A stretch of 39,818 bases of DNA, taken from NCBI GenBank assembly GCA_016281335.1, contig JAEEIK010000137.1:1-39818 (forward strand), read 5' to 3'. The notes beneath the pieces were generated by a model. That model saw only the letters and a program-made list of their open reading frames with translations. It was not told the origin of the DNA and did not search any database. Origin of the DNA: Lachnospiraceae bacterium (GTDB lineage Bacteria > Bacillota > Clostridia > Lachnospirales > Lachnospiraceae). This document shows positions 14,105-22,678 of this stretch, piece by piece; the first letter of the stretch is position 1; every line of letters begins with the position of its first letter. The translations under genes and the position numbers were made by a program.

Positions 14105-16348
14105 ATGGCAAACGATTATCTGAATGCAGGAAAAGCCGCAACCGGCAAAAAACTCAACAAAATCCTTGATGAGCTTAAAGATGATATAAACAAGCGCCAT
14201 CTTAAATCCGATCCTCTGAAAGAACTTGTTGACGGACTTGAACGCATAAAAATCGGTACAGAGCTTCCCAGGATCAAACCACTTGCGCTTTATCTCGATC
14301 TGATCGAAATGCTCCGTGCCGGATCCACGCAGCCCGGAAACTTTCCTACTCTCATAAACAGCGCGGAAGTCCTCTACGAAAATCTTTTCCTCTTTGGTGA
14401 AAAAACACCCGAGTTTGAAAAGACTGCTGAGATCTTTAAAGTACTTGCAGGCCAAAACGGATTGGTGATCAAAAGCTTCTTTGATCCCTATCTCTTTGCT
14501 TCCTTTACCGACAAGATCAATTACCTGACTCTTGTTAATGTGATTCACTCCGAAAGCAACGCCCTTAAGATATTTGACGGTCTCAGATCCTACGCGCTGG
14601 AAGCAAGACCCTTCTTTATCGATGACGAAGCTTATATGGCTTATTTACTGAATCTTGTCAGTAAAATGCGTTTCATCGCTCCCGATGAATACGGAGAGCA
14701 TTTAAAAAACGAGCTATGGAAATTACAGAGAGAAAACGGGCTCTATGATATAGATCCGCTCCGCCTTGCCGCAGTCGAGAAAAATGTACAGACAGCCGCT
14801 CTGACGATAGAAAACGGGAAAAGCGTTCTTGAATCCCTTGAGATAAAGAGCCGTGAGCTTGAACAACTCACCCGCGAACTGGAAGAACACACGCAGGAGA
14901 CCCTGCGTACCGCCGAAAGCATTCTTGAGAACAAGGCAAAAAACGCAAGAGATCTTATGGATGCAGAGCTTAATGATTATAAAGAAGCGGAGAAGAACGC
15001 CCTGCATCTTGAAAAAGATATCTTTGTTAAAGAACTTTTTTCCGATATCGAGAGCGAACTCACTAAATATAAGGCTATGGCCGGCGCCATAACCGGCTCC
15101 GCCGCAGCAGAGATCACTACCCTTTCGAAAGATGCCGACAAAGTGATCAGCCGCCTGAAAGAATCCATGGATAACGAAGAACGGCTGCGGGAGTATTCAA
15201 TACGTTCCCGCGAAGATAATGAGCTCCTGGAAAAGATAGCAAAACTGCAGCTCTTAAACGACAGCATGATAGACAGACTCGGAAAAGCCGCTGCAGCACC
15301 TGTCGAGGTCCCGGCTGATGCCGCCCCTCAGCTTCCGGTACAGACTTCAGAAGCCTGTAAAAATATGCCGGATACTTTATCCGACATTTCCCGTCCTCTT
15401 CCAAAACATCGAGCAATACCTGCAGTCAATCCTCTGCTTGATCGAAATGTTCCCTTCAAGGAAAGGTTTGCTCTGGCAATGAAGGAGAAAGAACGCAGGA
15501 TGGCGGCCGGCGAGATATTCCACGAAATGTTCGACGATGTCCTGATCGCCGTCATGGAAGAAGTCAATCCTTATCTTATCGGCCCTTCCGGCTGCGGTAA
15601 GACCTATATGGTCAGCCAGATAGGCGAGATCCTTAATATCGATCTCTCCGATATAGGTTACATCAACGAAGAATATGATATCCTTGGCTATGTAACGGCC
15701 ATGGGCGAATACAGCGAATCTAACTTTTACAGGCTGTACAAATACGGCGGCATAGCCTTCTGCGATGAGCTGGACAACGGAAACAGCAAAGCAACCGTAA
15801 AGCTGAATTCCTTCCTGGTCAACCGTGTACATGCAAGTTACTGTTTCCCCGGAGGTGAACGCGTAGAGAAACATCCCAATTTCCGTGTCATTGCTGCCGG
15901 AAACACAGACGGAAGCGGCGCTGACTTAAATTACAGCACCAGGGAACGCATAGAGGAATCTGTCCAGCAGCGTATGATCCCCATCTACGTTGATTATGAT
16001 AACCGTGTTGAAGAAGCAATACTCAAAAACTATCCCGACTGGTTCATCTTTGCCTGCGCTTTCCGCAAGGCTACAGATGAATGGAGCGCTGCCAGCGGCA
16101 TTCCCGCTCAGGGAATCTTTACCACCAGAGATGCTTTCCGCGTCAAAGAATACCTTGACAACGGCAGTTTCACTCCGGACAAGATCATGAGATATGAATT
16201 TGTCCAGACCAAGGAAAGCGAGTATCTCGGCTTTTTAAAGGAGGCTATCGGCAGACAGCTTACAACGGAATCCCCCGCTTACCCCATCTATCTGTTATTT
16301 GCGCAGGAAACAGACCGCATACGCCAGAATGGAAGATACGGCTCATGA
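14105..16348 (+). CDS. Coiled-coil AAA+ ATPase (MoxR/dynein-like AAA_5 type)
   Basis: This 747-aa protein has a helical N-terminal region (1 to about 215), a long charged coiled-coil stretch (about 220-390; LESLEIKSRELEQLTREL), a proline-rich linker (about 395-440) and a C-terminal AAA+ domain. The ATPase has Walker A GPSGCGKTY near 494, Walker B IAFCDELDN near 550, sensor-1 IAAGNTDGSG near 596 and arginine-rich STRERIEESVQQRM after it. This arrangement matches MoxR/AAA_5 ATPases, which usually act with vWA-domain proteins to remodel or activate targets. An AGGAG site precedes its ATG, and the vWA-like gene overlaps its stop by four bases (ATGA). Confidence 0.85.
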   Translation: MANDYLNAGKAATGKKLNKILDELKDDINKRHLKSDPLKELVDGLERIKIGTELPRIKPLALYLDLIEMLRAGSTQPGNFPTLINSAEVLYENLFLFGEKTPEFEKTAEIFKVLAGQNGLVIKSFFDPYLFASFTDKINYLTLVNVIHSESNALKIFDGLRSYALEARPFFIDDEAYMAYLLNLVSKMRFIAPDEYGEHLKNELWKLQRENGLYDIDPLRLAAVEKNVQTAALTIENGKSVLESLEIKSRELEQLTRELEEHTQETLRTAESILENKAKNARDLMDAELNDYKEAEKNALHLEKDIFVKELFSDIESELTKYKAMAGAITGSAAAEITTLSKDADKVISRLKESMDNEERLREYSIRSREDNELLEKIAKLQLLNDSMIDRLGKAAAAPVEVPADAAPQLPVQTSEACKNMPDTLSDISRPLPKHRAIPAVNPLLDRNVPFKERFALAMKEKERRMAAGEIFHEMFDDVLIAVMEEVNPYLIGPSGCGKTYMVSQIGEILNIDLSDIGYINEEYDILGYVTAMGEYSESNFYRLYKYGGIAFCDELDNGNSKATVKLNSFLVNRVHASYCFPGGERVEKHPNFRVIAAGNTDGSGADLNYSTRERIEESVQQRMIPIYVDYDNRVEEAILKNYPDWFIFACAFRKATDEWSAASGIPAQGIFTTRDAFRVKEYLDNGSFTPDKIMRYEFVQTKESEYLGFLKEAIGRQLTTESPAYPIYLLFAQETDRIRQNGRYGS

Positions 16349-17240
16349 AGATTAAAGAACTCAGCTTTCATGATGAATACCAGGCATACAGGATCTATCG
16401 GATAGACTTCAACTCCCTGACTCAGCTTGAGCTTTTCCTGTCCGGAGATCAGGCGGTAAATACTACTGCCTTCAGTTCCCAGAAGAGCCTTACTCTTCCC
16501 GTGGAATTCGCCGGTGTGCCTTTGAATGAAGCGATACAGTACTGTCATGGGGGATATGCAGAGGGTTTTCCCCTCTTCCTTCAATTAAAAAAGGAACTCG
16601 AGAATACAAACCGTAAAACCACAAACGTACGAAGGAGCGTCCCTTCCGTCGTGGGCTCCCGTCCTCATATTCCCAACTTCGTTGCCGGAACTCCCAAGAC
16701 CATGTGGAGACTTGATAAAGCAGAATCCAAGAGTTTTATAGATGTTTATATCAATCTTGTTTACAGTGCAGATACCACGGAAGAACAGATACGAAACCGC
16801 GGCATCTTAACACTTAACATGATCAATCTTTTCGAGCAGAATAACATCGCGGTAAACTTAAGCGTATTTGAAGCAAGCATGTTGAAAAACGAAATCTTCA
16901 TTGCGGACATCCGCCTCAAGAAACCCGGCCAGGTACTCAACGTCGGCAAGTGTTACTATCCCTTATGCGGAAAGGAATTTGTAAGAAGGCTGATGCTTCG
17001 CGTTAAAGAATCTATGCCCTTCAAACAGGAATGGGGAAAGGGTTACGGCATCGGTGTTCCGCGAAAGCTCTTAAGAAAATTGATGAACATAGACAGCAAC
17101 AAACTCCTTATCGGTTCACCCATGGAGATGGGCATTAAGGGAAAAAACATTTTTGAGGATGCAGATCACTTTTTTGAATGCTTAAAACTTACGGATAAGA
17201 TCCTGGTACCGAAATACACTCTACATCAAGGTAAAGCCAT

Positions 17241-17244
<4 letters not shown>
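16345..17244 (+). CDS. vWA-like protein (DUF7192-like), partner of the AAA+ ATPase
   Basis: This 299-aa protein has a basic linker near residue 90-95 (NRKTTNVRRSVPS) followed by PNFVAGTPKTMWR and a Rossmann-like half. That half has a first strand IDVYINLVYSADTTEE, a helix with RGILTLNMINLFEQNN, and strands VNLSVFEAS and EIFIADIRLKKPGQ. The pattern resembles DUF7192/vWA-like proteins found beside phage and stress-related ATPases, but a complete DxSxS metal site is not visible. ATGA overlaps with genes on both sides imply translational coupling. I infer that it acts as adaptor or target for the AAA+ protein. The family assignment is from recall and should be treated as tentative. Confidence 0.65.
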
Positions 17245-22036
<4,792 letters not shown>

Positions 22037-22043
22037 AAATATA

Positions 22044-22187
22044 AAAAAGGAAAGAGAAAAAACTTTGAAAGAAACAAAGCGTGCTTGTTTCTACCGGGCA
22101 ATACGTTTCTTCGCTGCCTGCAAAGCTTTTATAAAGAAACGCTGCACCCGCTGCAGGCGTGAATCTTCACATTTCTCTTTCCTTTTT
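22044..22187 (-). ncRNA. Candidate retron-like structured RNA upstream of the RT
   Basis: A perfect 16-bp inverted repeat bounds the segment. On the minus strand AAAAAGGAAAGAGAAA (22187-22172) pairs with TTTCTCTTTCCTTTTT (22059-22044). The interior has further pairings: GTGA/TCAC; CTGCA/TGCAG; CGTTTCTT with AAGAAACG; GAAACAA with TTGTTTC; and a competing GCCTGCA/TGCAGGC. The segment is 144 nt long and ends seven bases before the RT start. Retron msr-msd RNAs have exactly this plan, with a1 and a2 arms enclosing hairpins directly upstream of the RT. The branching guanosine cannot be assigned with confidence. A structured leader or small inverted-repeat element are alternatives. Confidence 0.5.
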
Positions 22188-22195
22188 ACACCTGA

Positions 22196-22678
22196 TCAGT
22201 TAAGAGCTTCCAGTATGCGTTCACGCATATAGTTCACTCCATTGGGAAGGTACTCGAAAAAGTCCAGTACCTTTATCCCGTTCATATCGCAATAGGTCTT
22301 CACCTGACGGTTAGCGACATGATCATATGTTAAATACTTTTTCCAGACTCTGATATATACTGCTTTCCCGTTCGCACTGAGCTTATAAGTGAAAGCATCC
22401 GGAGTAGCGCAGTTTCCTCTCTTATAGATCTGCTTTCCTGCAACAACTTCTATCTCATCAACAGGCACGAACTCTTCCACTCTGACATCACTGCGCTCGG
22501 CAAGCACTTCTTTTAACTTAACATCAAAGGGCCTTGCATCCTTTTCATACTGCTGCTGCAGCTGCGTAGTGGTAGGCGTCCCCGCCGGACGCGCATAGTC
22601 TTCTACCTTGTTATCCGCCTCACTTAACATCTTTCCCGCTGCTACGGCCATTTTGGCCAGACTACCGAGTAAACTCAT
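22196..22678 (-). CDS. 160-aa protein of unknown function
   Basis: I do not recognise this family. The N-terminal 75 residues look helical and flexible (MSLLGSLAKMAVAAGKMLSE; TTTQLQQQYEKD). The C-terminal part (about 75-160) looks like a compact alpha/beta domain with VVAGKQIYKRGNC, TYKLSANGKAVYIRVWKKYL and KVLDFFEYLPNGVNYMRERI. No signal peptide, membrane helix or catalytic motif is visible. Its ATG overlaps the EAL-protein stop (ATGA), and it immediately precedes the candidate RNA and RT. It is therefore a possible accessory protein of the RT, but it may equally belong with the phosphodiesterase. Confidence 0.8.
   Translation of the reverse strand: MSLLGSLAKMAVAAGKMLSEADNKVEDYARPAGTPTTTQLQQQYEKDARPFDVKLKEVLAERSDVRVEEFVPVDEIEVVAGKQIYKRGNCATPDAFTYKLSANGKAVYIRVWKKYLTYDHVANRQVKTYCDMNGIKVLDFFEYLPNGVNYMRERILEALN

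What the first reader, a model, noticed from the sequence alone, without database searches (positions are those of the whole stretch)
22044..22187. Candidate retron-like msr-msd RNA directly upstream of a reverse transcriptase
A perfect 16-bp inverted repeat (22187-22172 with 22059-22044) brackets 112 nt that contain several smaller stems, ending seven bases before an RT start codon. Known retrons place an RNA with complementary a1/a2 ends and internal hairpins immediately 5' of the RT gene. The RT also carries YSDD and VTG. It lacks a clear NAxxH motif, so this could be a divergent retron or an unassigned RT class with its own template RNA. The arms are purine/pyrimidine biased, which raises the chance of coincidence somewhat.
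Basis: partly seen in the sequence, partly recalled or inferred. Interest (0 to 1): 0.85.

Follow-up and report, generated by a model that had tools for sequence, protein, structure and literature searches.

The report
UG26 reverse transcriptase's template-like RNA
A gut-type bacterium carries a reverse transcriptase with its own knotted companion RNA and a small partner protein; it is not a retron but an untested relative of bacterial anti-virus systems that copy short RNA templates into repetitive DNA.

Summary
In detail: a perfect 16-bp inverted repeat at 22044-22059/22172-22187, the only one of that size in the window (0 of 1000 local shuffles gave one). The retron reading does not. The RT (20852-22036, -) is PADLOC class UG26 (478 bits, next 120). 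That stem belongs to the RNA: over 78 distinct homologues 97.5% of its cells pair, with two-sided changes at 10 of 12 pairs. A pseudoknot (GCCUGC/GCAGGC), not in my model, is 99.3% paired, 5 of 6 pairs changed on both sides. A small upstream gene, a degenerate PD-(D/E)XK-like protein, recurs in 25 of 33 and 67 of 80 loci. Best reading: a three-part DRT-type system whose RNA scaffolds and templates short-repeat cDNA, as in DRT9, DRT10 and DRT3a. Candidate template: the loop between the last hairpin and the outer stem; a direct-repeat (A-B-A') signal there is suggestive, not proven. I found no expression, cDNA or defence data. RT class, RNA family and part of the partner family are known; joining them, the full fold and the template prediction appear new.

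The parts
22044..22187 (-). whole UG26/RT-5 ncRNA as defined here (P1 to P1')
   Evidence: own covariance model, 119 bits at 22183-22048 (the window's RNA is one of the 15 the model was built from); Rfam RF03026 70 bits at 22162-22057
22172..22187 (-). P1 5' arm (outer stem)
   Evidence: covariation
22044..22059 (-). P1 3' arm; its first 4 nt (22059-22056, UUUC) are the candidate A' alignment element
   Evidence: A' is inference
22159..22170 (-). P2 hairpin
   Evidence: 4 of 4 pairs with changes on both sides
22153..22158 (-). pseudoknot 5' strand GCCUGC
   Evidence: 99.3% of cells paired, 5 of 6 pairs with changes on both sides
22116..22121 (-). pseudoknot 3' strand GCAGGC, in the P5 loop
22095..22150 (-). 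P3-P4-P5 extended hairpin holding the pseudoknot loop
22071..22091 (-). P6 hairpin; candidate template boundary element
   Evidence: poorly tested by covariation (57-76% of cells paired); role inferred from DRT10 SL5 (PMC12632851)
22060..22070 (-). candidate template loop UUUCAAAGUUU (A = UUUC, B = AAAGUUU)
   Evidence: UUCAAA in 86 of 106 RNAs; direct repeats; inference
20852..22036 (-). UG26 reverse transcriptase, 394 aa
22196..22678 (-). accessory protein, 160 aa; N-terminal hydrophobic segment plus degenerate PD-(D/E)XK-like domain
   Evidence: homologue upstream on the same strand in 25 of 33 and 67 of 80 loci

Best explanation
This is a three-gene retroelement of the UG/DRT kind: accessory protein, ncRNA (RT-5 extended by an outer stem P1, hairpin P2 and a pseudoknot), and UG26 RT. 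Shown here: the RNA's conserved fold, its position and its close linkage to the RT. Inferred: the RT binds the folded RNA, and P6 sets the 5' boundary of a short template in the loop between P6 and P1'. The RT copies that loop repeatedly, the nascent cDNA slipping back onto a second copy (A') of the first template bases at the start of P1'. The product would be a short tandem-repeat single-stranded DNA, in the window probably units like AAACTTTGAAA or CTTTGAAA. The nearly invariant C-terminal Tyr370 could be the primer. The accessory protein would sense or be controlled by the cDNA or RNP, and the system would act in phage defence.
For: UG26 assignment 478 vs 120 bits; 27 of 27 aligned RTs also match UG26. 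RNA found by my model in 79 of 81 public-collection loci, same strand, 10-493 nt 5' of the RT; 31 of the 33 RT-positive family genomes appear in the RNA list. Covariation in P1, P2, pseudoknot and P3-P5. Accessory gene in 25 of 33 and 67 of 80 loci. The Class 2 UG systems studied so far use a cis-encoded ncRNA as template for tandem-repeat cDNA, and in DRT10 the template lies just 3' of a boundary stem-loop (PMC12632851, PMC13174585). The loop keeps UUCAAA in 86 of 106 RNAs; A and A' match better than permuted (1 of 2000 permutations reached it), and in the UUUAA type the first bases of A and A' agree in 25 of 33 RNAs against 13.4 expected. Tyr370 is kept in 34 of 34 and 79 of 80.
Against: No transcript, cDNA or phage data. 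A-A' in the 19 RNAs not ending UUC did not beat permutation (1626 and 672 of 5000), and with the LCS score on representatives it was weak (66 of 2000). In the UUUAA type, 6 of 87 (all) or 8 of 82 (unique) other columns carry as much mutual information with A's first base, so relatedness explains part of the signal. A' overlaps the top of P1', so P1 pairing alone could keep it. UG26 was not placed in a tree and its Class 2 status was not tested. The closest solved folds are group II intron RTs (TMq up to 0.75), then G2L4 (0.70) and DRT9 (0.62). Two divergent RTs (G193, G293) gave no RNA hit. The accessory gene is missing in 8 of 33 and 13 of 80 loci (4 of the 13 have under 700 nt upstream). The 16 of 16 occupancy of one genus is unusual for defence.
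Confidence: 0.55

Rival explanations
1. Same three-part UG26 system, but the RNA templates something else (a longer single-pass cDNA or a DRT2-like concatemer), or is only a scaffold or activator while synthesis is templated elsewhere.
For: The A-B-A' statistics are only suggestive; the template region was not observed; conserved UUCAAA could be a protein-binding site.
Against: The loop's position after a hairpin and at the base of the outer stem matches the DRT10 description. The loop is short: 9-12 nt in 105 of 106 RNAs.
Confidence: 0.3
2. Divergent retron: the inverted repeat is a1/a2 and the interval is msr-msd.
For: RNA upstream of an RT with complementary ends; VTG in the window's RT and somewhere in 28 of 81 RTs of the second set.
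Against: UG26 RT, retron St85 model far below cut-off; NAxxH in 0 of 34 and 3 of 81, VTG not conserved; RT-5 RNA with pseudoknot.
Confidence: 0.03
3. Cis-acting leader or attenuator that controls RT translation or transcription, not a trans-acting RNA.
For: In the window the RNA ends 7 nt before the RT ATG with no clear Shine-Dalgarno sequence (by eye).
Against: RNA-to-RT distance runs from 10 to 493 nt, over 100 nt in 12 of 79 loci, with the same fold; by eye a terminator-like hairpin lies between them in L004.
Confidence: 0.08
4. Chance inverted repeat in purine/pyrimidine-biased sequence.
For: Arms are purine/pyrimidine biased.
Against: 0 of 1000 local shuffles; compensatory changes at 10 of 12 P1 pairs in one set and 12 of 12 in the other.
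Confidence: 0.01

Closest known systems
Rfam RF03026, RT-5 RNA
   Same: The window's RNA scores 70 bits over the whole 104-position model (gathering 45.7); 28 of 30 family loci also hit.
   Different: The Rfam model's flanks are unpaired: P1 is absent and the match starts inside P2. cmscan shows no pseudoknot (it may not show one even if annotated). The output seen attaches no mechanism.
UG26 RT (PADLOC RT_UG26, DRT set)
   Same: Full-length match, 478 bits.
   Different: I found no paper on its RNA, product or activity in the library searched.
DRT10 (UG17 RT + SLATT + ncRNA)
   Same: ncRNA with a large outer stem and inner stem-loops, short loop template after a boundary stem-loop, a partner protein, conserved C-terminal residue that primes (PMC12632851). 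In UG26 the template and the priming are inferred.
   Different: RT is not UG17 (108 bits vs 478); no SLATT among the proteins scanned; order here is accessory, RNA, RT; the loop sequence is more conserved; tandem-repeat synthesis not shown.
DRT9 (UG28) and DRT3a (UG3)
   Same: ncRNA-templated repeat or homopolymer synthesis; conserved template stretch in DRT9 (PMC12483538, PMC13174585).
   Different: No poly-U or ACACAC template; Drt9 77.7 and Drt3a 67.7 bits.
PADLOC RTasCOG2852
   Same: 12 of 19 accessory homologues match it, best 3.5e-63.
   Different: The window's protein and 5 further homologues tested do not; profile comparison joins the two subfamilies (99.1%, E 1.1e-18).
Retrons
   Same: RT preceded by an RNA with complementary ends.
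   Different: RT class, motifs and RNA fold differ.

Membership tests
UG26 RT | best match to the class HMM over the whole protein | tested here: met
   478.4 bits, residues 1-390, model 1-397/398; next RT 119.8, UG17 107.6
UG26 RT | placement in an RT phylogeny | not tested
Rfam RT-5 RNA | score above gathering threshold | tested here: met
   70.0 vs 45.7 bits, model 1-104
Retron | RT with NAxxH and VTG motifs (as named in the finding; that they define retron RTs is recalled) | tested here: not met
   NAxxH 0 of 34 and 3 of 81; VTG at the aligned place 4 of 34, anywhere 28 of 81; the window's RT has VTG but no NAxxH
Retron | match to a retron RT model | tested here: not met
   NF038233 46.8 bits, cut-off 235; other retron models not tried one by one
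Retron | branched msDNA | not testable with these tools
   needs nucleic acid from cells
DRT10 | UG17 RT | tested here: not met
   107.6 bits vs 478.4 for UG26
DRT10 | SLATT partner | tested here: not met
   no SLATT among the Pfam hits of the 8 window proteins scanned or of 19 accessory proteins; other window proteins not scanned with Pfam
DRT10-like mechanism | A-B-A' template loop 3' of a boundary stem-loop | tested here: inconclusive
   UUC repeated downstream in 79 of 87 RNAs of the UUC type; permutation results mixed
DRT10-like mechanism | tandem-repeat cDNA, protein-primed | not testable with these tools
   Tyr370 conserved but no coordinates or assay
PD-(D/E)XK-like accessory domain | fold | tested here: inconclusive
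   AF2 pLDDT 89-96 per block over residues 91-160, 60-76 over 71-90, under 60 over 1-40; top Foldseek hits are Bax1, Hjc, RecU/PrfA, VRR_NUC, bunyavirus endonucleases, none at E<=0.001
PD-(D/E)XK nuclease | conserved catalytic D...(D/E)xK (motif recalled) | tested here: not met
   only M1 and R154 invariant, N146 and Y150 nearly so, in 19 proteins
RTasCOG2852 (PADLOC) | HMM match | tested here: not met
   window protein: only LmuC, E 0.0081; 12 of 19 homologues do match

The most novel reading that the evidence does not exclude
UG26/RT-5 is a previously unrecognised telomerase-like DNA writer spread over three bacterial phyla: its pseudoknotted RNA carries a UUC-AAA-N3..5-UUC template/alignment repeat from which the RT adds short DNA repeats, read out by a membrane-tethered, nuclease-derived sensor protein. 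In some genera it has become a fixed gene rather than an occasional defence element.
Probability: 0.3. Interest if true: 0.8.

Novelty: new variant of a known kind. Interest (0 to 1): 0.6.

Why it matters
DRT10 was recently proposed as a bacterial relative of telomerase (PMC12632851); another RT class with a conserved, pseudoknotted template-like RNA would test how general RNA-templated repeat addition is. The work turns three separately catalogued items (an Rfam RNA, an RT class for which I found no mechanism, a partly catalogued accessory family) into one system with a defined RNA, a stated template and a directly testable product.

Tried and rejected
Retron and chance readings: see rivals. 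Plain MAFFT alignments (A1, A2) misplaced P1 and P6, so a covariance model was built from 15 sequences (A2) and the RNAs were realigned to it (A4, A7, A8). A4, A7 and A8 therefore lean to the nested helices, but not to the pseudoknot, which was not modelled.

A UG17 search of 149 phylum genomes returned RTs of at most 178 bits, many in several copies, which I read as group II intron RTs; UG17 similarity is therefore not diagnostic. A tree of RT classes was dropped. The single-protein scan of genome contigs found nothing; the alignment query did. Viral contigs: one weak hit, 25% identity, no RNA. Among neighbours, apart from the accessory gene and an ABC-transporter cluster in 10 genomes, no cluster occurs in more than 3. 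Hits to mad3, PtuA and AriA in window proteins I take for generic ATPase matches, a guess not tested with Pfam. PDB sequence search with the accessory profile: nothing at E below 0.1.

Full report
OBSERVATION. The inverted repeat is as described, is unique at that size in the window, and is not expected by chance (0 of 1000 local shuffles). The intergenic strand folds far better than shuffles (z -5.48).

WHAT THE RT IS. ORF 20852-22036 (-) matches PADLOC RT_UG26 over its whole length (478.4 bits); next are 119.8 (generic RT), 107.6 (UG17), 99.5 (UG27), 88.5 (a Cas1 fusion) and 77.7 (Drt9). NCBIfam gives no call at its cut-offs; group II RT has 121 bits against 300, retron St85 47 against 235. 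AlphaFold2 model: mean pLDDT 93.4. Nearest solved folds among the 50 rows shown are group II intron RTs (TMq up to 0.75), then G2L4 (up to 0.70), DRT9 (up to 0.62), DGR (0.60), DRT2 (0.53) and retrons (0.43-0.48). I did not build a tree, so the place of UG26 among the UG classes is not established here.

WHAT THE RNA IS. Rfam RF03026, "RT-5 RNA", 70 bits at 22162-22057. RT-5 is at or above gathering in 28 of 30 UG26 loci of the window's family; of the two misses, L008 has a contig end about 80 nt upstream and L017 scores 103 bits with my model, which it helped to build.

MY MODEL. A model with the outer stem (R1) finds the RNA in 32 of 36 sources, 15 of them its own training loci; the four misses are L031, L052, L053 and L064. 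Of 81 loci fetched from the public collections it finds the RNA in 79; the misses are L109, with only 106 nt upstream, and the weak viral locus L175. Some of these 79 are the same loci as in the first set: 111 RNAs gave 106 distinct sequences. In family genomes the RT occurs in 33 of 299 at E<=1e-60 and the RNA in 33 of 397. Of the 33 RT-positive genomes, 31 are in the RNA list; G193 and G293 are not. The two other RNA-positive genomes (G725, G770) were not in the RT search.

TAXON RANGE. The 80 genome loci are the best of 537 or more relatives, and include records titled Lachnospiraceae, Clostridiales, Bacteroidales, Prevotella, Propionibacteriaceae and Bifidobacteriaceae (phylum names recalled). 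They were found through two motif patterns, so conservation of those motifs in them is by construction. Five RTs scanned from the non-Lachnospiraceae records score 473-555 bits for UG26. In 398 genomes sampled over the window's own phylum only 3 matched at E<=1e-40: the window's own, one in its family, and one weak, 140 bits.

COVARIATION. On 78 distinct RNAs (A7) 94.2% of cells pair, against 47-53% for partners slid by 1-3 columns; 37 of 42 pairs have changes on both sides. P1 is 97.5% paired with 10 of 12 pairs changed on both sides. The pseudoknot GCCUGC/GCAGGC is 99.3% paired with 5 of 6 (for example GUCCAU/AUGGAC and ACCCAU/GUGGGU); 6-9 of 78 rows have gaps there. The overlapping set A4 (32 RNAs) agrees: P1 12 of 12, pseudoknot 6 of 6. 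P1 and the other nested helices were in the model that made the alignments, which favours them; the pseudoknot was not. P6 is poorly aligned (57-76% paired) and its pairs are not well tested.

THIRD PART. The ORF just upstream (22196-22678) has a homologue in the same place in 25 of 33 family loci with upstream DNA (the profile was built from 21 of them; absent in G110, G294, G004, G189, G041, G193, G293, G079; G061 and G089 left out for lack of upstream DNA) and in 67 of 80 named loci, always upstream on the RT's strand (iterated profile; four of the thirteen misses have under 700 nt upstream). PADLOC knows part of this family as RTasCOG2852 (12 of 19), but not the window's or five others tested, from Bacteroidales, Prevotellaceae, Propionibacteriaceae, Clostridiales and Lachnospiraceae records. 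hhalign joins the two subfamilies (99.1%). Residues 91-160 are confidently modelled and the best structural neighbours are PD-(D/E)XK nucleases, none significant alone. The catalytic residues are not conserved, so I expect a binding rather than a cutting role (inference). The N-terminus is short and hydrophobic; membrane contact is speculation.

MECHANISM. In the Class 2 UG systems studied so far a cis-encoded ncRNA templates repeat cDNA (PMC13174585, passages). In DRT10 the template lies in a loop just 3' of a boundary stem-loop, uses an A-B-A' repeat, and is protein-primed at the C-terminus (PMC12632851, abstract, results, discussion and part 1 of 2 of the figure legends). In DRT9 a conserved U tract is the template (PMC12483538, passages). 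The UG26 RNA has the matching place: P6, then a loop of 9-12 nt (105 of 106), then P1'. The loop keeps UUCAAA in 86 of 106.

TEMPLATE-REPEAT TESTS. For: the bases before AAA recur downstream more than when 3' parts are permuted among RNAs (106 RNAs: 3.387 vs 3.10, 1 of 2000; 87 representatives: 3.287 vs 3.046, 1 of 2000; longest common substring on all: 5 of 2000). In the UUUAA subtype the first base of A equals that of A' in 25 of 33 (13.4 expected; 1 of 10000) and in 16 of 24 unique tails (9.4 expected; 36 of 10000). The clearest contrast is CUUU-AAUG-CUUU against AUUU-AAUG-AUUU within one genus. This subset of 37 loci was chosen after seeing the pattern, and 4 of the 37 did not fit it and were dropped. 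Against: 19 RNAs not ending UUC, no clear excess; weak for longest common substring on representatives (66 of 2000); 8 of 82 other columns (6 of 87 in the full set) share as much information with A's first base. The shuffles do not remove relatedness. I call this suggestive.

PRIMING. Tyr370 is kept in 34 of 34 and 79 of 80. Without coordinates I could not measure its distance to the active site.

DISTRIBUTION PUZZLE. In one genus 16 of 16 genomes carry one copy of the RNA, at several different chromosomal sites. In another, 3 of 3, with the same flanks around truA and rplM-rpsI where the contigs reach (gene names recalled from the sequences). In a third only 1 of 3, and a second genome of the window's own genus, G728, has none while G004 has it. 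Fixation in one genus is unusual for a defence element and unexplained.

LITERATURE. Searches for RT-5 RNA, UG26, COG2852, RF03026 and combinations found no paper describing this system; the one paper holding UG26 with reverse transcriptase (PMC10504277) is a cold-seep virus survey seen only in listings. The myRT paper (PMC8934634, passages) has no UG26 in its main text. The 2017 paper that I recall as the source of RT-5 is not held; the main UG/Abi survey (recalled) did not come up. So "new" means not found in this library.

Noticed in passing
L032/L209-L223 (genus of G238): 16 of 16 genomes of one genus carry exactly one copy of the RNA, at several non-syntenic sites.
   Followed up: partly
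L036, L224, L225: UG26 system between a truA-like gene and rplM-rpsI-like ribosomal genes in 3 of 3 genomes of a genus.
   Followed up: partly
L053 (G293), L052 (G193): Divergent UG26-like RTs without an RNA hit; L053 shows by eye a possible shorter RNA with an outer stem upstream.
   Followed up: no
L165, about 160-1260 nt 5' of the RT: Two neighbouring upstream open segments both match the accessory profile, perhaps a tandem duplication.
   Followed up: no
window 14105-17846 (+): AAA ATPase, DUF7192 and TelA-like genes in one run next to the system; no PADLOC match at E<=0.001.
   Followed up: partly
window 20852-20855: RT stop overlaps by 4 nt the start of a beta-galactosidase gene (17841-20855), hinting at coupled expression.
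   Followed up: no
L037 (G175), accessory protein: A longer accessory protein with a cysteine-rich N-terminal extension resembling a zinc ribbon.
   Followed up: no
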